From: a virus
Virus record (IMG/VR): IMGVR_UViG_3300031857_000835
Location: 1-32,178 of that record
Length of the DNA stretch: 32,178 nucleotides
Reading direction: 5' to 3' (one strand)
Translations under genes and position numbers: made by a program
Notes under the pieces: model-generated
The model's input: the letters and a program-made list of their open reading frames with translations, nothing else
The model's database searches: none
What the model was told of the DNA's origin: nothing
Part shown: one piece after another, positions 2,135 through 17,935 of the stretch
How the letters are laid out: each line of letters starts with the position of its first letter
Numbering within the stretch: the first letter of the stretch is position 1

Positions 2135-2163
2135 AGTATAAGCGGGGCTGATATGTATGTCAA
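2135..2163 (-). promoter_or_regulatory. Sigma70-type promoter reading left into the primase gene
   Basis: On the minus strand the -35 box is TTGACA (2158-2163), the spacer is 17 bases and the -10 box is TATACT (2135-2140). The -35 is a perfect consensus, the -10 matches 5 of 6, and the spacing is ideal. Transcription would start near 2128 and run through the primase and the HNH-like gene. Confidence 0.8.
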
Positions 2164-2429: not shown

Positions 2430-2457
2430 TTGACAAAGCAAATGAATGCTCTATACT
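2430..2457 (+). promoter_or_regulatory. Sigma70-type promoter reading right into the recombination genes
   Basis: The -35 TTGACA (2430-2435) and -10 TATACT (2452-2457) are separated by 16 bases. Transcription would begin near 2464, about 25 bases before the ATG at 2489. A strong Shine-Dalgarno, AAGGAGG (2478-2484), lies just upstream of that ATG. It uses the same -35 and -10 hexamers as the leftward promoter, so both probably answer to the host housekeeping sigma factor. Confidence 0.8.
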
Positions 2458-2488: not shown

Positions 2489-3124
2489 ATGGATGGGCAA
2501 TCTAGTCCCCATGTCTTAGCAGGTATCAAGCATGTGATGCAGGCATTCGCTGATAAGGGAATCGCCAAGGCACACAAGAACGAATCCCAAGGCTTCAAGT
2601 TCCGTGGCATCGATGACGTCATGAACCGGATGGCTCAGCATCTGGTCGAGGCGGGTCTTGTCATTGTCCCAAGTATTAGGAGTCGTGAAGTTCATGAGCG
2701 TGTTAATAGTCGGGGCAACCCCCTGTTCTATGTGACCGTGCAAGTGGACTTCACTGTGTACTCAGCAGTCGATGGCAGCAGCGTGGTTTGTTCCGTGCCG
2801 GGTGAGGCGATGGACTCGGGCGACAAGGCAACCAACAAGGCGCTGTCGATCGCATACAAGTACATGGCGTTCCAGCTCTTCGCCATTCCGATTGATGAGG
2901 ATCCTGATCGCCACACCCATGTGGTTGGCAAGGAACCCGCCAAGACTCTGACGGATAGCGACATCGAGATCATCCGCAAGCTGATGGCTAGTACGGATGT
3001 GACGGAGCAGAAGCTTCTCGAGATCTACAAGGTAGGCGATCTGGAGCAGATACCAATTGGCAAGATGGCAGAGATCACATCGAATTTACAGAAGCGAATC
3101 AAACAAGCAGAGGAGAAGGAATGA
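2489..3124 (+). CDS. erf: ERF-family single-strand annealing recombinase
   Basis: Cytoplasmic recombination protein expected to bind single-stranded DNA and anneal complementary strands. The ERF signature is clear: GFKFRGIDDVMNRMAQHL near residues 35-52, and GEAMDSGDKATNKALSIAYK followed by YMAFQLFAIP near residues 107-136. The C-terminal third is charged and less conserved, as is usual. Length (211 residues) is normal for the family. The ATG at 2489 has a near-perfect ribosome-binding site, and the gene is first after the rightward promoter. Its stop overlaps the start of the next gene (ATGA), indicating translational coupling. With the Cas4-like nuclease at 4648 it probably forms the phage recombination module. 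Confidence 0.92.
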   Translation: MDGQSSPHVLAGIKHVMQAFADKGIAKAHKNESQGFKFRGIDDVMNRMAQHLVEAGLVIVPSIRSREVHERVNSRGNPLFYVTVQVDFTVYSAVDGSSVVCSVPGEAMDSGDKATNKALSIAYKYMAFQLFAIPIDEDPDRHTHVVGKEPAKTLTDSDIEIIRKLMASTDVTEQKLLEIYKVGDLEQIPIGKMAEITSNLQKRIKQAEEKE

Positions 3125-3384
3125 GTAAGCAATACAACAACATCTCGGTATTCAAAGCAAAGGCAAGCCAGAACGCGAAGGCTCCGCAGTTCAACGTAGT
3201 CATCGAGATGGCTGATGGAACCAAGTGGCGCGGCGGTCTGTGGGAGGCAACATCCAAGGCTGGCACCAAGTACCTGCGTGGCTCACTCGATGAGGACACA
3301 GGTCAAGGTGGTGGCGGTCAGGTCAGAGCAGCGCCTAAGAACGACGATCCATTTGCTGGTGGTGGTGACTTAGTAGATTGGTGA
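3121..3384 (+). CDS. Small protein coupled to ERF; possible ssDNA-binding accessory
   Basis: An 87-residue protein whose ATG overlaps the ERF stop by 4 bases. The first 55 residues look like a small beta domain (FNVVIEMADGTKWRGGLWE, then KAGTKYLRGSL). A glycine-rich linker and an acidic end follow (KNDDPFAGGGDLVDW). The layout of a compact beta domain, a flexible Gly-rich linker and a DDPF-like acidic tail recalls single-stranded DNA-binding proteins, and the fold also recalls the DUF736 type. Neither assignment is proven by eye. Its place directly behind ERF supports a role with ssDNA. Confidence 0.7.
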   Translation: MSKQYNNISVFKAKASQNAKAPQFNVVIEMADGTKWRGGLWEATSKAGTKYLRGSLDEDTGQGGGGQVRAAPKNDDPFAGGGDLVDW

Positions 3385-3542
3385 TCGACGCGCCCCGGGT
3401 TCATACGTATTGCAGATGCGCCCACCGACCGGGGGCCAACGCAAAGGGTGGGGAAACTTCCTTTCGACTCGGGGAACCGGGTGGTTACAGCCCATAACGT
3501 CAGGGTAATCTGCATCGGCGTGACAACTGGAGAGACAGTGAT

Positions 3543-3629
3543 GGAGAGGACGCCTCGTAGGAAGGGCACCGGACTGTAACTCCGTGGTCGGCTAGTTCCG
3601 TGAAGGTTCGAATCCTTCCCTCTCCACCA
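3543..3629 (+). tRNA. tRNA-Tyr (GTA anticodon) or tRNA-Tyr-like domain
   Basis: The acceptor stem GGAGAGG (3543-3549) pairs with CCTCTCC (3619-3625), followed by A and an encoded CCA. The T arm GAAGG/TTCGAAT/CCTTC (3602-3618) is canonical and identical to the E. coli tRNA-Tyr T arm as I recall it. The anticodon loop CTGTAAC (3574-3580) gives GTA, tyrosine. A 16-base variable region with a short CGG/CCG stem makes it class II, as bacterial tRNA-Tyr should be. The D stem GCCT/GGGC (3552-3555/3564-3567) closes with a T-G pair. Oddities: position 8 is A where U is nearly universal, and pair 27-43 is a C-T mismatch. It may therefore be a weak tRNA or a structural tRNA mimic inside the larger RNA. 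Confidence 0.75.
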
Positions 3630-3716
3630 AGACGCATGAGGATTGACCATTCAAAAGATGGGCGTCGGGCAGGACAGATAAACCTGTACCCACTTGCAGT
3701 CCTCAGTCGTGTTGGT
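3627..3716 (+). repeat. Long-range helix unit A (first copy of duplicated stem)
   Basis: The left arm CCAAGACGCATGAGGATT (3627-3644) starts in the CCA end of the tRNA. The right arm AGTCCTCAGTCGTGTTGG (3698-3715) pairs with it as 8 bp, a CA/GT internal loop, then 8 bp with one G-G mismatch. The interior holds an alternative GACGC/GCGTC stem (3631-3635/3662-3666) with CCAT/ATGG, and an ACAG/CTGT hairpin (3674-3687). Both arms recur in unit B. Confidence 0.7.
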
Positions 3717-3839
3717 GACGACCATCATACCGGGCCGTGTGGGAAAACGGGGCATCACCAGATCTCAACTTGGGAGATCGGCGGCGAAACCAAGAGGCAG
3801 CGCGGAAAGACGCGCCGTGTTCCTGACTGATCATCAGGG

Positions 3840-3981
3840 CCAACACGCATGAGGATTTGGGCAGGATGAAGCCGGTCAGTGGAAAGCTCTAACGTCACTT
3901 GCTGCAGCAACACGCTATCTGTCTTTAATCCCGGTGCTCTGTACGGATCGCAACCGTAACCGAGTCCTCAGTCGTGTTGGT
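3840..3981 (+). repeat. Long-range helix unit B (second copy of duplicated stem)
   Basis: The left arm CCAACACGCATGAGGATT (3840-3857) differs from unit A by one base, and that change restores a perfect CCAACACG/CGTGTTGG outer stem. The right arm repeats 19 identical bases of unit A (3963-3981 against 3698-3716). The interior is unrelated to that of unit A and includes a TTGCTGCAGCAA palindrome (3899-3910) and hairpin TACGG/CCGTA (3942-3958). Confidence 0.7.
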
Positions 3982-4147
3982 TTCAACGAGGGAAAGCAAG
4001 CGGCGGGGAGCTTTGGTCGGTTCATCCCAAATGCTTGTGAGTACCTCACCCGTTTATGGGCAAAAGCGGATGCTGTGAAATGGGTAGCCGGGAACAATCA
4101 CTACCGGCCACAGACGCAGCGAGTAGCCCACCTTATTAGGAGGATGT

Positions 4148-4651
4148 GTGGATCAGTACATAGGCACCAAGATCATCAAGGCAAAGCCAATGAACCGTCT
4201 GGAGTACAACCAGCTGCGCGGCTGGGAAGTTCCGGCAGACGAAGACCCGAATGATGAGGGCTACCTCGTAGAGTACACGGATGGTGGTAAAGCTAACCAT
4301 CGCGACTTTGGGGGCTATATCAGCTGGTCTCCAAAAGATGTGTTCGAGCGAGCGTATCAACCGACAGCGGGTATGGATTTCGGGATGGCGATTTGCGCAT
4401 TGAAGCAGGGCGCCAAGGTTACCCGCTCTGGTTGGAATGGCAGGGGCATGTGGCTAATCCTCGTGAGCGGCCAACCAGAAGTAAATACGTTCCCCAACAG
4501 CGCGTACTACAACGCTGGCGTTAAGCAGTGCGAGATTCTCCCCCACATTGATATGTGGACTGTGAATGCACAAGGTCGTCGCGCAATGCTTCCGGGCTGG
4601 TTGGCAAGCCAGTCGGACATGCTGGCTGAGGACTGGATGATCGTCGAATGA
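4148..4651 (+). CDS. Tad2-like (DUF2829) anti-Thoeris protein with an extra N-terminal domain
   Basis: Residues 76-167 match the DUF2829/Tad2 pattern: MDFGMAICALKQGAKVTRSG, WNGRGMWLILV, HIDMWTVNAQGRRAMLPGWL and SQSDMLAEDWMIVE. Characterised Tad2 proteins form oligomers that sequester the cyclic ADP-ribose-type signal of the Thoeris defence system. Residues 4-70 form a separate domain (YIGTKIIKAKPMNRLEYNQL, GYLVEYTDGG, GGYISWSPKDVFERAY) often seen joined to DUF2829 in phages; its function is unknown to me. The start is GTG at 4148 with GGAGG at 4139-4143. A start at Met15 would cut into the conserved first domain. The gene directly follows the structured RNA, and its stop overlaps the nuclease start (ATGA). 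Sponge activity here is inferred from family. Confidence 0.85.
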   Translation: MDQYIGTKIIKAKPMNRLEYNQLRGWEVPADEDPNDEGYLVEYTDGGKANHRDFGGYISWSPKDVFERAYQPTAGMDFGMAICALKQGAKVTRSGWNGRGMWLILVSGQPEVNTFPNSAYYNAGVKQCEILPHIDMWTVNAQGRRAMLPGWLASQSDMLAEDWMIVE

Positions 4652-8625: not shown

Positions 8626-8982
8626 ATGAGTGAGCTAGAAAGAATCTACGCAGAGGCAAGAGAGTATGCGGAGGGTGAGCGCAGGTTGGCTCAAGAGGGA
8701 GTCATGCAGCTGGACATCCAAGCGCTGCGCAGGGAATACATCGATTTGATGGCAATGGTGGCGTACTACACCCGTATTGAACAGGCAATGTCTGCCACCC
8801 CGCGCCTACACTTCGATGCGCTGAAGAAGGCAATGAAGGACATCAAGGCAGAGGAGATGCTGCATCAGGCAGAGGTTGCATCTGAGGACGGGATGCCGAT
8901 TGCAGGGACCGCCCGTGTTCCGGCTAAGCCCCTGCTCGAGATCCTTTCACGGCTGAAGGCGATCCTTAGCGATCATCAATAA
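8626..8982 (+). CDS. Hypothetical helical protein, last gene of the rightward operon
   Basis: A 118-residue protein starting at the ATG at 8626 (MSELERIYAEAREYAEGERR); the longer frame from 8536 overlaps the previous gene and lacks a ribosome-binding site. It is helical throughout, with a linker (PIAGTARVPAKP) before the last helix. No family is recognised. Its final 17 bases overlap, tail to tail, the end of the giant minus-strand gene. Confidence 0.65.
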   Translation: MSELERIYAEAREYAEGERRLAQEGVMQLDIQALRREYIDLMAMVAYYTRIEQAMSATPRLHFDALKKAMKDIKAEEMLHQAEVASEDGMPIAGTARVPAKPLLEILSRLKAILSDHQ

Positions 8983-11900
8983 CCTCGGCAGTGAAGCCAC
9001 GCTCCAGTGCTGCCTTAACAGATCTGGCTCTCCATTCCTTCCTCATCGCTTCGTATTCGTTTCGAAGTTCTACCTTCTGACGATCGGAGCGATTGGGGTC
9101 GCGCTCGATGGCTTCCAGATTTTTGCTCATCTGTTTCATCTGCTGCTCGATCCCAGAGAACATGGCTTGCATTTCACCAATACGAGGATGAGCTTTGAGG
9201 ATCTCACGCTTTCTCGCCTCTGATGTTTCGGGTGCCATGTACTCCTTGTAGGAAGTATTGACCTCCTCCTTGACTCGACGGTACGCGCCAGCGTTGAACG
9301 AGTCCTCATCGATCTTGGCCTTGAACCTACCAAGTACCGGGAGGTCTTGATCCTTTGTATCCCGGCCAGCAGCGGCGTTCAAAGCCTTCCCGGCTCCTTG
9401 ATACATCGAAGAGATCAGACCCGGCAGATAGCTGTTGATCAGGTAATCCACGGTTGCTGGATTAACATCGATCAACGACTCGTTGTACCTCGGGTTCTTC
9501 CCGCCAGATGTAGCCTCAGCCAAGAAGTGCATCAGGCTCTTCGAAATCGGGTTCACGCTATCAAAGTGCTTGTAGGCGTCAGACTCTTTGATGTCAGAGA
9601 AGTCGCTCTCACCCTTGGCAATCGGAGCGCCAAAGCGGTTTTCGTTCAACCCCAACTCGAGCAGCGGAACCGTAGGACTTGGCAGCAGAGTCTTACCAAC
9701 CTGACCCAAGAAGCTCTTCGATTCCACGCCGGAACCAATCGGAGCAAACGCATCGAATGCGGCCTTGACAACCTTGCCAGCTGAACTTGCTGCGCTGCGG
9801 TAACCCATCGCCGTGTCGTAGGCGTACTGCCCCATTGTGGAGAACACGTTCCAGCCATAAGCCACAGGAATGGAGCCGAAGTAGGTGTCAGGCAGGAAGG
9901 TGATCGAGGTAGCTCGCTTGTAGTCAGGCACCTTGTCGATGGCGCGAAGACCTTTCTTGCGTTCCTCTTCATCGTCATCACCAAAGGCGTCAGCAATCAT
10001 GCTACCGATCATGCCCATCGTGATCCAGCCCGCAGCCACGGCGCCAAAGCGAACGTAGTTGCCTTCCTTGGCATCCTTGAACATACGCATCGTGCCCTGA
10101 ATTGCCGGATTGGCAAACACGTACAGGGCTCGCAGAGGTTTGTAGGCGCCCTTCATGTTGAAGTTGACCGTCAGCTCCTTTGCGTAGCGAGCCGCCTCTT
10201 CTCTGGATCTTCCAGCCTCACGCAGCACCTTGTATGCAGCAAGACGCGGGGCGATCTCAGCAGGTGTGCCAAGCAGATCCATCAGATCAGCGATCGCATC
10301 GAACTTGCCGGTTGTCCAGATGCCAGCATCTTTCACGCCTCGGATCTTACCGATCGTCATCGGGTTCAGGTGACGGTTTAGCTTGTCGATCGTTTGCTCC
10401 AGACCGTTCCTGTCGATGAAGTATGTAGCTGCTCCGTCCTCGAAGAACTCACTGATCCACTGCTTCTCAGAAGCCGACAGCGGGTTCTTCTGAGCAGCGG
10501 CTTTCATGCGGTTGCCCCACCATCCCTGCTTTGCGTCGGCTTGCTCTGCTACCAAGTGACGGAAGGCAATACGGTGAGTGCGCTTCCACTCCATGAACAT
10601 CTTGCCAGCCAGCTCAACACCAACCTCAGGGTCAGCGGCAGCGTTGGCGAACGCAGTTTGAATGTCTCGGACCATGTTTACCGGTACCCAAGCCGGGTTC
10701 ATCGTTGTGACCATCTGCGAGAACAACCTGTTCCAAACAGCAACAGCCTCAATGAACGGTCCGTTCTGGGTGATGTTCATCCCGGTGATAGCATCGAAGA
10801 AGTCCATCGACTTGCCGTTGAACTCCATCGTGATTGGCTTGCCGTTGACCTTGACCACCACCTGACGATCTTTGTCGCCCGTGGTCTCGACGGTCGTGAC
10901 GTATCCGTCTGGGCTCAGTCTTGCCGAGATCACAACCTGCTCGTTGATGTTGCGAACTGCACGAGCTGCTTCGTCTGGAGAGATGTCGCGACGAGTTTCG
11001 GCTTCGTTGATCCGGCGAACCAGATCAGCCATAGCATCATCGCTGTCCAACGCGCCATCTTTCATTTGACGCTGGAGACCAATGAGGTACTCGCGGCCTG
11101 ATTCTTCGGTTGGAGCATCACCAATAGCACGAAGGATCTTCTTGTCGAAGCTCAGGCGGTCGATGTTGATCTGCTTGCGACGATTGACGTTTTCAACCTT
11201 GACGTAGCTCTGGTCGGGGTTCTGCTCAAACATCTGCAGAATTGCTTGCAGCGGACGGTTCTTCTGTCCACGGATGATCGTAGCCAAGTACGAGTTCATC
11301 GTGTTCTGCAATACATCTACAGCTACTGTGCCACGACCAGTTGCTCGAATGATGTCAGAGCCACGCACATTGAACGAGCGCCCACCCAACTGGCTGACGT
11401 CGTACTTGTCGAGATCCAACTCCTGATTGCCGGAGAGGTTGACGTAGTGCTTGTAGCGCGACAGGGACTCGTACTGATACTTGTTGATCAAGCCAGTGTT
11501 GAGCATGTAGCTCAGCTTAGCTTGGCTCATTGCATCCATCAGCCTGCCGATCTCACTCAGCTCATCAATAAACGGCTTACCCTCCATGTCCTTCAGAACA
11601 TCCTCGTACCCCGGCGTGACAGTGCCGTCACTATTGGTTGTATTGCGGGGGCCCATGCCAGAGCCACGCGAGTTCTTGGGGTTGATCGCTTTGATGACAC
11701 GGTTACGCTCCTCGGCATGACGCGCCATCAGGAACAAGTCGATGTCTTCCAGCGTTGCACCTTTCTTGCCAGCCTCACCCATCAAGCGGGTAATCGGGTT
11801 GGCGAACTTTTTCTCGTAGTTGTCGATGAACCACTTGGTGCGAGACTCATACTTGATCAGGTCATCGATGACCGAGTTCTTGATGCCTTTGCCCTCGAGG

Positions 11901-14900
11901 AACTTTGCCACCTCAAAGATGGGCAGGAACATGTTCTGACCTTGGATCAGCATGTTGCGCTTGAATCTAGCCCAGCCACTCAGGTCACTGAAGTTCGGGA
12001 TCTCGGCCACGTTCTTAGGATCAACTTCTTGGCGTGTCGAGCGGTCACGAGCCATCGTCACCTGACCCACCTTCTTCAGCAGATCATGTGCATCCACCAG
12101 CTCTTCAACGGTGTGGACAGTGTAGTTGCCTGAGGCCAGAGACTCTGCGCCATTGTTCAGGGTGAAGACAGTCCAGTACCCATTGACTGGGTTGATGCGG
12201 GTATAGCCGGTGACCTTACCGTCCCGAATAGCGTAGCCTTCGACAGGCATCTTCTTCGAGCGGTTGTACATCACATCAGAAGGGGCGCCATCGAGCGGTG
12301 AGATGCCCTGCTTGGACATTGCTACCTTACGAGCCTGAGACATGACGTATGCCAGCTCAGAGGATCCGGTTGAATCCAGCCAGCTTGCCACGTTGTTCAT
12401 GCCGTGCTTCTTCAGCCAGCGCACCAGACGACCCATCAACTCACGGAATGCACTTGCATTACCTTCAGTTGCCTGATCAGCAATCGCTTCTTCGATGGAC
12501 TCCAACTTGGTCATCGGCATGCCGTTTTCTTTGGCTTCCGCAGCTAGACGGTCGGCAGCTTCACGAACTTTCTGGTTGACCTTGTACTGGTTGTTCAGGA
12601 AAGAGTCGATGCTATCCCCGAGGAAAGCCCTCATGCCCCAGTGACCGTACAGCTCGTGGAACATTGTGAACTCTGCATCTTCCACCGACTCAGCAAACTC
12701 CGAGAAGATGTAGATGTGTCCCGTCTTGGGATCAATCGCACCCTTGAACGAGCCATTCTCAAAGCGGCTCATCAGACGGTTACGCACATCAGCAGGCAGC
12801 TGGTTCGGGTTTTGAACTACCGTGTAAGCAGGAGTTGTGTCCCACTTCGAGAAGATGCGGTTGAAGTGTTCTTGCAGGGTGAGTGCGCCAACCACACCAG
12901 AGAAACGGCCACGACGATAGCGGGTACCCTCGCCGTCCTCATCTGAGATCTCATCCAGATCCTTGGCGTTGGTGTCGTCACGCGCCATTACCTCTTTCAG
13001 GTAGGCGTCGATCGTATTGTCAGGGTTAGCGCCAGCCTCGATTGCAGCCTTGGCAACGTCGTTCAGCTCAGCTGCCTCATGCAGGATGGACTTGAACTGA
13101 CCTTCGTCGGCTTTGGCAATCTGAGTGCGGTAGTTCATCCACATCTCAGGCGACAGGTAGCGCAGCTGATCGAGCTGGGAATACACGGGCGAGCGCATCT
13201 TCATGTCGAGGTTGCGCATTGCCTCTCTCACCTGACGGGTGAAGAATTCGTTGTAGGCTTCCTGCTCTTCTTTCGTCAGAGCGTCGTTGACCTGATTCTC
13301 GAGGTCAGGGCGAACAGTCAGGACGTCTGAGATGTCTTGCAGCCAAGCACGTACCGGATCAGGGAATAGGTCACGGATCATTTGGCGCAAAGGCACCTCA
13401 GTGATCGTGTCAGGATTCCTCATCTCAGACAGGGAGAACTGATTGAACAGGGCGTTCGGGAACAGCGTTTCCAAACTGCCGGTCGAGAATGAAGCGTTGT
13501 CCTTGATGCGGTCGGACAGGCGCTGCATGTACTTCCTGCGATTGTTCTTCCAGTTATCGTAGGCAGTCTTCTCGGTATCACTAAGTGGTACCAAGCTCTT
13601 GACGGGAACGTTGTCGTAGGCTTTGAGCCACGCTTCACGGGCCATGTACGGGCTCATCCCCGACTTGTCCATATAGCCTTCGAGGGTGTAGTTGGCGGCG
13701 ATGTTGCCTGACAAATCGATGTACTTCTTTCCAACTTGAACACCAGCTTCGCGCATAGCGTCGAGCAGATGCATCATCCCTATGTCGTTCTCGCGGACAG
13801 CCTTGACTGCCTCTTCGAAAGTCATCTCTTGGGCTTTATCAACAGCCTCTTTGATGTCCTTCTCGGAGAAGCCCTCCTTCTTCATGCGCTCACGAGTCTT
13901 CTGCTTATTACCAATCGCCTCTACTAAAAGACGAGCCTCGGTGCGTTGCTGGTCATTGAAGTCCAGCTCAGTCTGCATCTCGTTGCTACCCGGGAAGGTC
14001 TCGGGTTCTGCATTAGTGTCTTCTGCCACAGGAACTGCAGGGCGGCTATCGCGTAGCTGTTCTTCAACGATGTCGGCCAGCTCGCCATCACGCAGCGCCT
14101 TCAATTCAGCTTCGGCTTTACCAACAGTAGCGTTGATCTCAGATTCAGAGAACCCATCCCTCGCCATCAGATCTCGCACGCCAGCAAGCTGACCGAGCTT
14201 TCTGTCAACGTCTCTGAGCAGAGAGCGGACGCGCGCGTTCATGATCTGCGCGTTCTCTTCTGCCAAACGATCTTCCTCGGCCTTGCGTTCTTCTGCGGTT
14301 TGGGTCTTCTGCTCAGCTTTGATCTGACCCTCGGCGCCTCCCAGTGATCCAGCCATAGCCAACTGAGTCATCACACCACCGGTATCGTTGTCCAGTGATG
14401 TGTCGGGCATATCCTCAGGGTTGAAGTCTTCAGTGATGCGATCATCCAAAGCCTTGCGCTTGCCCTCTTGACCGCGCTGGATTGCAGTGTCCTTGCGCTG
14501 AGCCTTCTTCTCTTTAACGCGGTCCGTCTCACCAGACATAATCCGGGACACTTCGGTGTCAAAGGGGGTAACGTCACGCTTCAATCGCAGAGCGCCCTGA
14601 GGTTCCTGACTAAAGATCGCCTGACTGATCTTCTTCGACCCTTCGGCTTGGACCGCTGCTTCCAACTCTTTGAAGTCCTCGCCAAACGAACTCAGGCTTG
14701 ATGCCTTGAATAGTTTGTTGGCTTCGATCAACGCCTTGTTTCGAACGCCTTTCTCTGCAGACTTGTTATTTGCAAGACGCAGCAGCTCCACGACGGCGCG
14801 GACATTCTTCTCAGCCTCAGCCAAAGCAAGGGCGCCTTGATCGTAGCGGACTGGAGTTTCCTCTCCAGAGTCGGTCTGATCAGACTGGGACACGTTCGGG

Positions 14901-17900
14901 TCAGCTATACCAAGAGCTTTCCTTTGCTGGGCAATATACTTCTCGTTGTCCTCAATAACTTTCTTGGCGTCAGTCTGATTTGCAGGTGCCTGCTGACTTT
15001 CTTTCACCACATCGTTGAAGTTGACGCCGGTCCTCTTGTACAGATCCGCCTTACGGAAGATGCCACGGGCTTGCTCAAACTCACCACTTGCCAACAAGGA
15101 GCGGACTTGCGCTAAGGTCTGCTTGTCTTCGTCGCTGGTTCCCTCAAAGGCGTTGTCGATCGCGCCATCTGAGGTGAAGTCGAGGTCAGTCCCACCTTGG
15201 GACTCGGTGACAAATCCGACCAGCATCTCCCTGACCTTCTGCATGTCGGTCACGTACTCTGCGATCAATCTGTTGCGCTCGGTCATGAAGCCGAACTTGT
15301 AAAGCATGTCATCGATGACTTGAATGATTTTGTCTACAAGCGTCGGTTGCTTCTGACTCAACTCAGCCCAGAACTCTTTCTCGGTGAACATGTAGCCCAT
15401 CAGGTCGGCGGTCATCTCCTCATCAATCTTGGAGATGTCGTAGCCTCTATTCAGTAGCTTTTGAGCTAACACCTCTTTGCCCGGCTGGGTGACGTAAGAC
15501 AGGATCTCCTGTTCCAACTGGGCAGCGACTTCAGGGTTTCTACGGCGCAGCTCGTGGTACAGCTCATGACCAAAGATAGCCATGTGGTTGTCCTGAGCGT
15601 CAGCGTTGATCAACATGACGCTGCCCGACAGGGAAGACCCACGACGGGTGCGAAGCAGCTTGTTGTTGCCTGCGTACCGGAAACCGTACACCTGAACACC
15701 AAAGCGCTTAGCAAGCTCCCTGATCTGCGGAGGGATAGGGGTCTCGATGTAGTCTGATGGCTTGGCGGTCGGCTCCCTTTCCAGATCTCTCTGGGCCATA
15801 CGCTCACTCACTTGAGCAAACGTCTGGAAGTTGGGGTCGATCTTGGGACGGATGTCTTCTTGTGTGAAGTCCAGATCGGCGGGAGGTGGGGCTGCGTCTA
15901 CCTCTTCAACATTCTCAACAACACCTTGTTGTGGGTTGGCGATAGATCCAAAGACGGACTGAGCCTGCTCTGGGGTGAATCCCCGGCTGATCATTTCCTG
16001 CATCGAGGAAGTGGCGGCAGCGCGACGAGCGCCCTCAGGCATGGACATCAGATTTTCTGCGCGGCGTTCGTAGCCACGGATCTGAATGTCTAGCGGAGGT
16101 TGGCCGGGAAGCTGAACGGATGGGCCAGCACTAAGCGTGTCGGAAGCTGGAGTGGATAGAGGTTTCTCTCGGGAGAACTGACCCTCGGCAATAGCTTGAC
16201 CTTCATCTGCCAGACTTTGCGCCATCTTCATGCGTTCACGAACAGGCACTGGGTCAGGCGGGGCATCTCTCATGGTGCCGCCATCAAACGGAGCGTCGTC
16301 CACACGAGCGTCAGGATTAGCGTTGTTTTCAGCTAACCGAGTGGTGAAATCCGCAAAGAAGTCAGGATTATTGTCGATGCGGGAGTTGCCCTCTTGCAGG
16401 ATAGATTGGTCCTGAGACAGCTCTGCAAAGTTGAGATCAGGGTTGGCGGTTTGTATGCGGGTACGACCGGCTTCGTCAGCGCGAGTCCATGCTGCGGTCA
16501 TGTAGGCTGGACTATTGACAGCCGCGCCGTACTCAGCATCCGTCAATGGAGGGCGGGCAGCTGATGATTGTTGCGTCTGCTGCGTCTGCTGCGTTTGTTG
16601 CGTTTGTTGCGTTTGTTGCGTTTGGCCCGGCTTGTCAGCAGGAGGGGGTGGGGTACTTGCGGGCTTGCTGCCACGAATAGCACTGAGCGTACCAAAGCCG
16701 CCACCAGCCGCAACGCCTAGAGCGGCGCCAGCACCAGCAGCCTGAGGAACACCCTCAAGAAGATCCTGATCAGGCTTAGCTCCCGAGTAGCGTGTACCAA
16801 CGTTGGTTGCAAACTGAGAGCCGCCTTCCTCAACAGCCTCTTGTGCTCCTTCTTTGACAACGCCTTTGCCAATCTCCGCCACGACCTTGCTGGCGGTGCG
16901 CTCCCCGATCTCGGATGCAACTTGACCAGTGAGAACCTTAGCTTCGAGCTTGCCAGCGCCAGTTAAGCCGCCAGACAGCAACGAGATTGTTCCAGCAAGA
17001 GATGCGGCGACAGCAGAGGCGTCATTAGACAGGCGTTCACGCGCTTGCTTTCTACCCTCTGGCGTGTCACCAAATTGTGATAACAACTGCTGATACTGAG
17101 GAGACTTACTCAGCTCATCCTCGCTCATCGTCATCACATTCTGACGAGCGTCCATACCAGCTGAGCCGCCTTCAATCGCGGCATTTAAGCCAAGAACGGT
17201 GCGAGTAGCACTTGTTGTCGCAGCAGTGGCCGCAGCTCCAGCAGACAAGCCAGAGGCTGTAGCAGAACTAAAAGCCCTAGCAGCAGCAGCACGAGCGGCT
17301 AATGCAACTGTGGCCAGCTGAGGCCCCATCTCAAAAACCATCGAACCGGCAAGGCGCGGGTTGGTAAGGATTGTCGAGAAAGAATCGACAAAACCTTTGG
17401 CCTGCTCCAGCTCAGCGCGCTGTGCCTGCAGTTCCGTGGAGTCTTGGGCGTTAAGACCCTTCCGCCATTTGTCCAGCACCTCGCCGGGAGTCGTTCCAGA
17501 GATAGCTCTTGCTGCCGCATCAGGAGCGCCCAACGTAACAAGGTTTGCCACCTCATTCACACCGCCAACAACGCTTATCGCTCCCCTGCCCAATGACCGC
17601 CCTACGTCTCCCAAGAAGGTTCCATCGGTCTCCGGAGTGGGCGCTGCTTTTGCTGTAGATGCTGCTTTGTAACGCGATTGGATTTCTTGCAGGACCCGAT
17701 CTGAATCAGATAAAGCTGGCGCGGGGTTTGGCGCAGCAGATGGCACAGGCGGGGGCGGAGCAATTGCGGCTCTGCGCTGCTGACTCAGATACTCAGCTGC
17801 TTCTTGGCCGGGCACATACTCGCGACCTCTTTGCTGCCGATATACGTCGCCGGGGTTGTATTCGCCACTTGCAATCGCCTGCCCTCTGCGGCGAACCTGT

Positions 17901-17935
17901 TTCCCTGCTTCGTCTGATGTTTGGAAGATCGCCAT
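8966..17935 (-). CDS. Giant polyvalent-type virion protein with two zincin-like motifs
   Basis: At 2989 residues this is the last gene of the late operon. The N-terminal 60 residues are short and Gly/Ala/Pro rich, followed by long Ala-rich hydrophobic stretches (about 195-260 and 395-420) that could interact with membranes. A glutamine/threonine repeat lies near 437-457. A zincin-like metallopeptidase motif GHELYHELRRR has its HExxH at residues 790-794. Long charged coiled-coil regions follow, then a second motif FHELYGHWGMRAFLG near 1760. A conserved block VTTMNPAWVPVNMVRDIQ near 2410 resembles the LPD38-type domain of large polyvalent proteins. A hydrophobic segment (GAVAAGWITMGMIGSMIADA) lies near 2640, ahead of a structured C-terminus. 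Its position after the nozzle and two smaller internal-type proteins matches the slot of the T7 ejection protein gp16. I infer an ejected virion protein that may cleave protein or peptidoglycan and help DNA cross the envelope. Confidence 0.85.
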   Translation of the reverse strand: MAIFQTSDEAGKQVRRRGQAIASGEYNPGDVYRQQRGREYVPGQEAAEYLSQQRRAAIAPPPPVPSAAPNPAPALSDSDRVLQEIQSRYKAASTAKAAPTPETDGTFLGDVGRSLGRGAISVVGGVNEVANLVTLGAPDAAARAISGTTPGEVLDKWRKGLNAQDSTELQAQRAELEQAKGFVDSFSTILTNPRLAGSMVFEMGPQLATVALAARAAAARAFSSATASGLSAGAAATAATTSATRTVLGLNAAIEGGSAGMDARQNVMTMSEDELSKSPQYQQLLSQFGDTPEGRKQARERLSNDASAVAASLAGTISLLSGGLTGAGKLEAKVLTGQVASEIGERTASKVVAEIGKGVVKEGAQEAVEEGGSQFATNVGTRYSGAKPDQDLLEGVPQAAGAGAALGVAAGGGFGTLSAIRGSKPASTPPPPADKPGQTQQTQQTQQTQQTQQTQQSSAARPPLTDAEYGAAVNSPAYMTAAWTRADEAGRTRIQTANPDLNFAELSQDQSILQEGNSRIDNNPDFFADFTTRLAENNANPDARVDDAPFDGGTMRDAPPDPVPVRERMKMAQSLADEGQAIAEGQFSREKPLSTPASDTLSAGPSVQLPGQPPLDIQIRGYERRAENLMSMPEGARRAAATSSMQEMISRGFTPEQAQSVFGSIANPQQGVVENVEEVDAAPPPADLDFTQEDIRPKIDPNFQTFAQVSERMAQRDLEREPTAKPSDYIETPIPPQIRELAKRFGVQVYGFRYAGNNKLLRTRRGSSLSGSVMLINADAQDNHMAIFGHELYHELRRRNPEVAAQLEQEILSYVTQPGKEVLAQKLLNRGYDISKIDEEMTADLMGYMFTEKEFWAELSQKQPTLVDKIIQVIDDMLYKFGFMTERNRLIAEYVTDMQKVREMLVGFVTESQGGTDLDFTSDGAIDNAFEGTSDEDKQTLAQVRSLLASGEFEQARGIFRKADLYKRTGVNFNDVVKESQQAPANQTDAKKVIEDNEKYIAQQRKALGIADPNVSQSDQTDSGEETPVRYDQGALALAEAEKNVRAVVELLRLANNKSAEKGVRNKALIEANKLFKASSLSSFGEDFKELEAAVQAEGSKKISQAIFSQEPQGALRLKRDVTPFDTEVSRIMSGETDRVKEKKAQRKDTAIQRGQEGKRKALDDRITEDFNPEDMPDTSLDNDTGGVMTQLAMAGSLGGAEGQIKAEQKTQTAEERKAEEDRLAEENAQIMNARVRSLLRDVDRKLGQLAGVRDLMARDGFSESEINATVGKAEAELKALRDGELADIVEEQLRDSRPAVPVAEDTNAEPETFPGSNEMQTELDFNDQQRTEARLLVEAIGNKQKTRERMKKEGFSEKDIKEAVDKAQEMTFEEAVKAVRENDIGMMHLLDAMREAGVQVGKKYIDLSGNIAANYTLEGYMDKSGMSPYMAREAWLKAYDNVPVKSLVPLSDTEKTAYDNWKNNRRKYMQRLSDRIKDNASFSTGSLETLFPNALFNQFSLSEMRNPDTITEVPLRQMIRDLFPDPVRAWLQDISDVLTVRPDLENQVNDALTKEEQEAYNEFFTRQVREAMRNLDMKMRSPVYSQLDQLRYLSPEMWMNYRTQIAKADEGQFKSILHEAAELNDVAKAAIEAGANPDNTIDAYLKEVMARDDTNAKDLDEISDEDGEGTRYRRGRFSGVVGALTLQEHFNRIFSKWDTTPAYTVVQNPNQLPADVRNRLMSRFENGSFKGAIDPKTGHIYIFSEFAESVEDAEFTMFHELYGHWGMRAFLGDSIDSFLNNQYKVNQKVREAADRLAAEAKENGMPMTKLESIEEAIADQATEGNASAFRELMGRLVRWLKKHGMNNVASWLDSTGSSELAYVMSQARKVAMSKQGISPLDGAPSDVMYNRSKKMPVEGYAIRDGKVTGYTRINPVNGYWTVFTLNNGAESLASGNYTVHTVEELVDAHDLLKKVGQVTMARDRSTRQEVDPKNVAEIPNFSDLSGWARFKRNMLIQGQNMFLPIFEVAKFLEGKGIKNSVIDDLIKYESRTKWFIDNYEKKFANPITRLMGEAGKKGATLEDIDLFLMARHAEERNRVIKAINPKNSRGSGMGPRNTTNSDGTVTPGYEDVLKDMEGKPFIDELSEIGRLMDAMSQAKLSYMLNTGLINKYQYESLSRYKHYVNLSGNQELDLDKYDVSQLGGRSFNVRGSDIIRATGRGTVAVDVLQNTMNSYLATIIRGQKNRPLQAILQMFEQNPDQSYVKVENVNRRKQINIDRLSFDKKILRAIGDAPTEESGREYLIGLQRQMKDGALDSDDAMADLVRRINEAETRRDISPDEAARAVRNINEQVVISARLSPDGYVTTVETTGDKDRQVVVKVNGKPITMEFNGKSMDFFDAITGMNITQNGPFIEAVAVWNRLFSQMVTTMNPAWVPVNMVRDIQTAFANAAADPEVGVELAGKMFMEWKRTHRIAFRHLVAEQADAKQGWWGNRMKAAAQKNPLSASEKQWISEFFEDGAATYFIDRNGLEQTIDKLNRHLNPMTIGKIRGVKDAGIWTTGKFDAIADLMDLLGTPAEIAPRLAAYKVLREAGRSREEAARYAKELTVNFNMKGAYKPLRALYVFANPAIQGTMRMFKDAKEGNYVRFGAVAAGWITMGMIGSMIADAFGDDDEEERKKGLRAIDKVPDYKRATSITFLPDTYFGSIPVAYGWNVFSTMGQYAYDTAMGYRSAASSAGKVVKAAFDAFAPIGSGVESKSFLGQVGKTLLPSPTVPLLELGLNENRFGAPIAKGESDFSDIKESDAYKHFDSVNPISKSLMHFLAEATSGGKNPRYNESLIDVNPATVDYLINSYLPGLISSMYQGAGKALNAAAGRDTKDQDLPVLGRFKAKIDEDSFNAGAYRRVKEEVNTSYKEYMAPETSEARKREILKAHPRIGEMQAMFSGIEQQMKQMSKNLEAIERDPNRSDRQKVELRNEYEAMRKEWRARSVKAALERGFTAEVIDDR
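16569..16625 (-). repeat. In-frame 9-base tandem repeat encoding a Gln-Gln-Thr tract
   Basis: About six and a third copies of a 9-base unit (tgttgcgtt and variants with ctg or gtc) encode a run of TQQ near residues 437-457 of the giant protein. Three units at one end differ at synonymous positions while the others are identical, which suggests recent expansion by slippage. It probably forms a flexible linker between the hydrophobic N-terminal part and the rest of the protein. Confidence 0.9.

What the first reader, a model, noticed from the sequence alone, without database searches (positions are those of the whole stretch)
3385..4147. Candidate giant structured RNA with an embedded tRNA-like domain
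Between two coding blocks in a genome that otherwise leaves almost no gaps, 763 bases have no credible ORF but at least a dozen nested or serial helices, several closed by perfect 5-7 bp stems. Named phage RNAs of this size (GOLLD, ROOL) lie beside tRNAs and fold into large multimeric objects. This could be a member or a new class. It sits between a recombination gene and an anti-defence gene, at the head of the early operon.
Basis: partly seen in the sequence, partly recalled or inferred. Interest (0 to 1): 0.9.

Follow-up and report, generated by a model that had tools for sequence, protein, structure and literature searches.

The report
Modular structured phage RNA with tRNA
The non-coding gap in this phage encodes a chain of structured RNA modules plus a real transfer-RNA gene, part of a widespread and largely undescribed phage RNA class in which conserved RNA frames hold interchangeable, very variable inserts, some of which resemble pieces of cellular tRNA.

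Summary
The gap 3385-4147 is real and non-coding. It is not GOLLD, ROOL or any other Rfam family; the only Rfam hit is a genuine tRNA-Tyr(GTA) at 3543-3629. The fold is not unusually stable (z -1.17), so helices seen by eye prove nothing. Comparison with related sequences does. Module A (3390-3538) is a pseudoknotted RNA in 20 divergent phage copies: on a sequence-only alignment 95.5% of cells pair, 8 pairs change on both sides, 0/500 shuffles reach this. Modules B1, B2 and D are 'frames': near-invariant irregular stems around hypervariable inserts. B occurs in more than 100 viral contigs (124 distinct units, 81 insert families). A second B type is common in enterobacterial prophages, followed by element E, a sibling of sRNA STnc100; parts match in 1197 of 5426 complete E. 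coli genomes. Inserts carry tRNA T-arms far above chance (21/363; shuffles mean 0.06; antisense 0); one matches 16S rRNA. Inserts recur across unrelated phages. Best guess: a trans-acting RNA that displays variable domains, some mimicking host RNA, to host factors. Anatomy is shown; function is inferred.

The parts
2489..3124 (+). ERF-family single-strand annealing protein gene (upstream neighbour)
   Evidence: Pfam PF04404 2.7e-15, phrog_155
3121..3384 (+). small DUF736-like protein gene, directly upstream
   Evidence: Pfam PF05284, 22.8 bits, just over its cut-off
3390..3538 (+). Module A: pseudoknotted RNA. P1 3392-3398/3429-3435; P2 3412-3417/3508-3513; P3 3421-3426/3447-3452; P5 3491-3493/3503-3505; P6 3497-3501/3517-3521; P7 hairpin 3527-3538 with GAGAGA loop. 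P2 crosses P1; P6 crosses P2 and P5
   Evidence: 20 homologues; 95.5% of cells paired, 8 pairs changed on both sides, covariation score 0.304 vs 0.095 shuffled, 0/500; P1 and P3 strand pairs (strands chosen by hand)
3543..3629 (+). tRNA-Tyr (GTA) gene with encoded CCA; the CCA is also the first three bases of B1
   Evidence: ARAGORN, Rfam RF00005 47.8 bits; same tRNA at the same place in L062, L063, L064, L068
3627..3715 (+). Module B1: frame CCAAGACGCATGAGGATT...AGTCCTCAGTCGTGTTGG with variable insert
   Evidence: repeat families D1/D2; unit scan; arms over 124 distinct units
3716..3839 (+). Module C: linker of unknown structure between B1 and B2, holding a GGAAAG hairpin near 3803-3816
   Evidence: inside a block 97% identical in L060/L061, absent in L059; no other full copy found
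3840..3980 (+). Module B2: same frame with a 103-nt structured insert shared with unrelated L222 and L243
   Evidence: 11 of 49 consensus pairs change on both sides and keep pairing among five sequences
3988..4047 (+). Module D1: GAGG-GAAAGC...GTGAGTA-CCTC frame
   Evidence: conserved in unrelated L148, L210, L187, L251; stem covaries
4058..4129 (+). Module D2: GGGC-AAAAGCGGATGC, insert, GACGCAGCGAGTA-GCCC frame
   Evidence: 27 distinct copies; outer stem run 4.74 in own pairs vs 1.58 after swapping; insert recurs in L148, L199, L210
4148..4651 (+). Tad2-like (Thoeris anti-defence 2) gene, downstream neighbour
   Evidence: Pfam PF11195 1.4e-22

Best explanation
The gap encodes a composite non-coding RNA made of a conserved pseudoknotted domain (A), a functional-looking tRNA-Tyr, and several 'frame' modules (B1, B2, D1, D2). 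A frame is a near-invariant, irregular stem whose tip carries an interchangeable structured insert. Shown: the conserved fold, modularity, insert hypervariability, recurrence of the same inserts and modules in unrelated phages, association with tRNA genes, and tRNA T-arm inserts. Inferred: the transcript is cut at the tRNA (RNase P and 3' processing) and acts in trans. The frames are bound by a common host factor or pack against each other, while the inserts bind or mimic host RNAs or RNA-binding proteins (tRNA elbow, in one case 16S rRNA), as decoys or competitors in host take-over or counter-defence. Fast change and swapping of inserts would reflect an arms race or different hosts.
For: A is conserved RNA structure. 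B: 124 distinct units, 66 arm pairs, 81 insert clusters, with a kept U-G wobble and 2x2 internal loop. D frame covaries; B2 insert covaries across unrelated phages. One cassette (GAGTAACAGCTATCRGCTCACCGTTGAAAGAATACGGACAAGTCGGC) sits inside A in L068, partly inside B in L058, and after B in L231. T-arm hairpins in 21 of 363 inserts vs mean 0.06 shuffled and 0 antisense. One insert type matches 16S nt 243-282 at 4e-7. B lies within 20 nt of a tRNA call in 8 of 113 units vs 0.9 at random. Related modules lie in tRNA regions of P1, ZC08, CASP1, ST16-OXA48phi5.2 and ST4. No protein family accompanies B in most loci (17 of 87 at best), which points to host partners or RNA alone. The neighbour gene is anti-defence.
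Against: No expression, binding or phenotype data. Most inserts (over 90%) have no recognisable host counterpart; rRNA matches apart from one family are at the shuffled level. Most B units are not next to a tRNA, and a few of the tRNA calls near B may themselves be tRNA-like modules. An anti-defence neighbour in one phage is weak evidence, and neighbours differ elsewhere. In the window the RNA has no promoter or terminator of its own, so a stable trans-acting product is not shown. Variable tips on a conserved core could also be mere tolerance, although recurrence and covariation of inserts speak against that.
Confidence: 0.42

Rival explanations
1. It builds an RNA nanostructure as GOLLD and ROOL do: the conserved frames are tertiary and quaternary joints, the inserts are peripheral stems, and tRNAs may be cargo.
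For: Similar size, phage location and tRNA neighbourhood. GOLLD and ROOL form homo-oligomeric cages, and GOLLD's linker sometimes holds tRNAs (PMC12286853). Candidate tertiary features: crossing helices in A; the E element has a GCUGA/UCAGC loop-loop complement that changes together to GUCGA/UCGAC in one variant.
Against: No sequence or structure match to either. Copy number and order of modules vary from phage to phage, which is hard to reconcile with one fixed assembly.
Confidence: 0.2
2. The modules are stabilising and processing spacers of phage tRNA operons: they shape RNase access and serve as landing sites where tRNAs and other cassettes are swapped by homologous recombination at the conserved arms.
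For: tRNA enrichment near B; tRNA CCA merges with the B arm; identical blocks between phages begin at the 19-nt right arm.
Against: Most B units and most module A copies have no tRNA near. The kept internal-loop and wobble details, and covarying inserts, exceed what a spacer needs.
Confidence: 0.2
3. A regulatory base-pairing sRNA of the STnc100/PasD sort, with inserts as seed regions for different mRNAs.
For: Element E, which follows B in many phages, shares its GGTGAAT-hairpin ... CCGG-hairpin-CACC plan with STnc100; PasD and STnc100 are prophage sRNAs with a common origin (PMC13192938).
Against: The window has no E element and no terminator with U tail for Hfq. Inserts are folded hairpins with compensatory changes rather than exposed seeds.
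Confidence: 0.11
4. Cis-acting leader that controls transcription elongation or translation of the downstream gene.
For: In the window and in lambdoid phages (Q to holin gap) the elements sit inside an operon.
Against: The gene downstream of module A differs between phages (Tad2, exonuclease, other small proteins). In L211 and L231 the RNA is followed directly by an intrinsic terminator.
Confidence: 0.07

Closest known systems
STnc100 (Rfam RF02076) and PasD prophage sRNAs
   Same: Element E, the usual partner of the B module outside the window, has the same closing GGTG/CACC helix and paired-hairpin plan; sub-threshold matches in Aeromonas ST4 (39.1 bits), P1 (33.4), ES2 (23.8) against a cut-off of 47
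   Different: The window itself has no E element; modules A, B, C and D match no Rfam family. STnc100 is described as a single sRNA, not as one module of a combinatorial RNA
GOLLD and ROOL RNAs
   Same: Large, phage-encoded, near tRNAs, variable part may hold tRNAs (PMC12286853)
   Different: No Infernal match; modular and variable order; different motifs; quaternary structure untested
Phage tRNA genes and tRNA arrays
   Same: A real tRNA-Tyr lies in the gap; many relatives lie in tRNA clusters
   Different: Most of the 763 nt is not tRNA, and module A persists in relatives that have no tRNA there

Membership tests
GOLLD (Rfam) | match to the Rfam covariance model | tested here: not met
   cmscan of 3300-4250 at E<=5 returns only tRNA and two sub-threshold chance hits
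GOLLD (Rfam) | multimeric RNA cage | not testable with these tools
   needs cryo-EM or native mass measurement
ROOL (Rfam) | match to the Rfam covariance model | tested here: not met
STnc100 / RF02076 | score over the gathering cut-off (47 bits) | tested here: not met
   no match in the window; relatives outside it reach 39.1 at best
STnc100 / RF02076 | GGTGAAT hairpin ... CCGG hairpin CACC plan | tested here: not met
   present in element E of related loci, absent from the window
tRNA (RF00005), for 3543-3629 only | full cloverleaf with anticodon, over cut-off | tested here: met
   ARAGORN tRNA-Tyr(gta); 47.8 bits vs 29
Frame-and-insert phage RNA modules (proposed here: B, D) | conserved covarying frame with hypervariable insert in unrelated phages | tested here: met

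The most novel reading that the evidence does not exclude
Phages carry a general RNA display system: a small set of conserved RNA frames (A, B, D, E/STnc100-like) into which interchangeable inserts are plugged, many of them mimics of host RNAs such as the tRNA elbow or an rRNA helix. The repertoire evolves by cassette swapping to hit host or defence factors, and it is present unrecognised in classical phages such as P1 and HK629.
Probability: 0.3. Interest if true: 0.93.

Novelty: new variant of a known kind. Interest (0 to 1): 0.82.

Why it matters
It turns an unannotated gap into a handle on a large, mostly unnamed class of structured phage RNAs. The class spans metagenomic, lytic and temperate phages and matches in over a thousand complete E. 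coli genomes, and it links the isolated sRNA STnc100 to a modular system. Because relatives sit in P1 and lambdoid phages, the long-standing question of what large structured RNAs near phage tRNAs do can be tested with standard genetics. If the inserts are host-RNA mimics, this is a new kind of RNA-based take-over or counter-defence.

Tried and rejected
Folding energy as evidence: z -1.17, rejected. Rfam membership of the window: none but tRNA. Cultured-phage homologue of the whole region: none by blastn. P1 as carrier of a full module A: only 13.8 bits at the GTGACA-hairpin end, E 0.013, not accepted. A duplex-energy control with fixed windows for P1/P3 of module A: uninformative for P1 (-20.9 vs -18.0) and invalid for P3, replaced by the column test on the sequence-only alignment. 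Systematic rRNA mimicry of inserts: only one family, the rest at shuffled level. A conserved protein partner: none. Shared inserts between the freshwater and enterobacterial B types: none found. HDV-like or other ribozyme: no Rfam match, helix order differs; not pursued. Literature searches found STnc100/PasD and GOLLD/ROOL but no description of these modules; the library lacks most subscription papers. Caveat: the loci behind the B right arm were fetched with an exact right-arm pattern, so its invariance is overstated; the left arm was free.

Full report
WHAT WAS CHECKED. The window is a phage record of 32,178 bases. The stretch 3385-4147 follows an ERF annealing gene and a DUF736-like gene and precedes a Tad2-like gene. 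It has no credible ORF. ARAGORN and Rfam both find a tRNA-Tyr(GTA) at 3543-3629. A permissive Rfam scan of 3300-4250 finds nothing else of substance, so it is not GOLLD, ROOL or OLE. Its folding energy is within the range of shuffled sequence.

MODULARITY. Relatives were fetched through the flanking proteins. Their gaps align in blocks, not end to end. Module A (window 3390-3538) lies downstream of the ERF gene in all but one (L069) of the ERF loci L056-L077 and in L081; it is absent from L079, L080 and the more distant ERF relatives tested. It also occurs in three contigs fetched by pattern (L125, L126, L136). After A come, in different phages, tRNA-Tyr, one or two B units, a short hairpin, tRNA-Gly, or nothing. 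B is an inverted-repeat frame of 18-19 nt per arm around an insert. Between L059, L060 and the window the copy number of B changes, and identical blocks start exactly at the arm.

MODULE A IS A CONSERVED RNA FOLD. On a MAFFT alignment made from sequence alone, the helices P2, P5, P6 and P7 pair in 95.5% of cells. Eight pairs have changes on both sides; the covariation score is 0.304 against 0.095 in shuffles (0 of 500), and sliding a partner by 1-3 columns drops pairing to 23-42%. P1 and P3, whose lengths vary, were read by hand: 16 and 12 different strand pairs, 99% and 100% paired, 48% and 61% after swapping strands (hand choice favours pairing). The helix order is P1 P2 P3 P1' P3' P4 P5 P6 P5' P2' P6' P7, so P2 crosses P1, and P6 crosses P2 and P5. 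P7 ends in a GARAGA loop. A conserved ACYUCCU lies between P3' and P4.

MODULE B IS WIDESPREAD. The right arm alone hits more viral contigs than the scan can list (119 stretches). Among 124 distinct units the arms pair almost throughout (position 5 pairs in about half), keep a U-G wobble in 120 of 124 and a 2x2 internal loop, and enclose inserts of 20-104 nt in 81 clusters, 58 of them singletons. The right arm was part of the search pattern, so its constancy is overstated; the left arm was not. In enterobacterial phages an equivalent frame, ACAACAGGTAAGNGCATT ... AGTGCTCTTTCCGTTGT, has 79 distinct units (control 1 of 79) and the same inner core GAGSATTG/CAGTSCTC. It is often followed by element E.

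ELEMENT E AND STnc100. E has two invariant blocks, GGTGAATGCGNAGGCTGATNCGC and GCCGGAGATCAGCRCCGGCCACC, with a hypervariable insert between them; its outer stem covaries (3.79 pairs against 1.44 after swapping). The two hairpin loops are complementary over GCUGA/UCAGC, and one variant keeps this as GUCGA/UCGAC. E is not in Rfam but shares its plan with STnc100, which gives sub-threshold matches in Aeromonas ST4, P1 and ES2. E occurs in or beside tRNA regions of Alcaligenes CASP1, Pseudomonas ZC08, Klebsiella ST16-OXA48phi5.2, Aeromonas ST4 and P1. B and E also lie in the Q-holin gap of HK629 and ES2. Part of the HK629 copy is found in 1197 of 5426 complete E. coli genomes, unannotated in every row shown. 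The window itself lacks E.

MODULE D AND THE B2 INSERT. The last 150 nt of the gap (3988-4129) are 75-82% identical to unrelated phages L148, L210 and L187. They form two frames. The second, AAAGCGGATGC...GACGCAGCGAGTA, has 27 distinct copies whose outer stem is 4.74 pairs long in own pairs and 1.58 after swapping. Its insert recurs in L148, L199 and L210 with GCTGG/CCAGC exchanged for GCCGG/CCGGC. The B2 insert recurs in L222 and L243, with 11 consensus pairs changed on both sides. The inserts are therefore folded, conserved parts in their own right. One cassette is found inside A (L068), inside B (L058) and after B (L231).

WHAT THE INSERTS RESEMBLE. Of 363 inserts, 21 contain a closed T stem with a canonical T loop. 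Shuffled inserts give 0.06 on average (maximum 2 in 200 rounds), and reverse complements give none. One insert (L451) reads as a D arm and T arm without an anticodon arm (Rfam tRNA 34.2 bits). One insert family matches 16S rRNA nt 243-282 (E 4e-7; Rfam 31.5 bits). Other rRNA matches are at background.

HOW IT MIGHT WORK. In the window the RNA lies inside an early operon without its own promoter or terminator, so a product would have to be released by tRNA processing and other RNases (inference). Elsewhere it is followed by an intrinsic terminator. No protein family accompanies it. I therefore favour a trans-acting RNA whose frames bind a common host factor or each other, and whose inserts engage host RNAs or RNA-binding proteins. 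The tRNA-elbow inserts and the neighbouring anti-defence gene are the main hints. This step is inference at about 0.4. Cage formation, tRNA-operon spacing, STnc100-like regulation and cis control are the rivals.

COMPARISON AND NOVELTY. By tool result it is not a GOLLD, ROOL or STnc100 member. By location and size it belongs to the same kind, large structured phage RNAs near tRNAs. The frame-and-insert architecture is not described in the papers I could search. I file it as a new variant of a known kind; if the display reading holds it would be categorically new.

Noticed in passing
L269 (P1 NC_005856.1 69000-71500) 502-1230: The P1 region annotated as minus-strand ORFs plp and upl overlaps plus-strand B- and E-type RNA modules beside tRNA-Asn/Thr; plp overlaps the tRNA-Thr gene. 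Both ORFs may be spurious.
   Followed up: partly
L303 4600-4646 (also L308, L318): The insert of an E element resembles bacterial 16S rRNA nt 243-282 (82.5% over 40 nt; Rfam SSU 31.5 bits).
   Followed up: partly
L451 3978-4026: E insert reads as a tRNA with D and T arms but no anticodon arm (Rfam tRNA 34.2 bits over 49 nt).
   Followed up: no
L264 735-800 (Pseudomonas phage ZC08): CUGAUGAG...CGAAAC...GUC pattern of a hammerhead ribozyme inside the tRNA cluster, read by eye; Rfam did not report it at E<=1.
   Followed up: no
window 3452-3466 and relatives of module A: A conserved ACYUCCU strand between P3' and P4 resembles the 16S anti-Shine-Dalgarno sequence and could also pair with the GGAGAG of P7.
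   Followed up: no
window 2135-2163 (-) and 2430-2457 (+): Divergent near-consensus promoters (TTGACA/TATACT, 11 of 12 each) between the primase-helicase and the ERF gene.
   Followed up: no
window 8966-17935 (-): A 2989-codon gene whose C-terminal 1344 codons match LPD38, a large polyvalent protein associated domain.
   Followed up: no
L062 6213-6288, L063 2694-2769, L064 1392-1467: tRNA-Gly(TCC) directly after B, so that tRNA-Tyr and tRNA-Gly flank one B unit; the B outer stem shares the CCA of tRNA-Tyr.
   Followed up: partly
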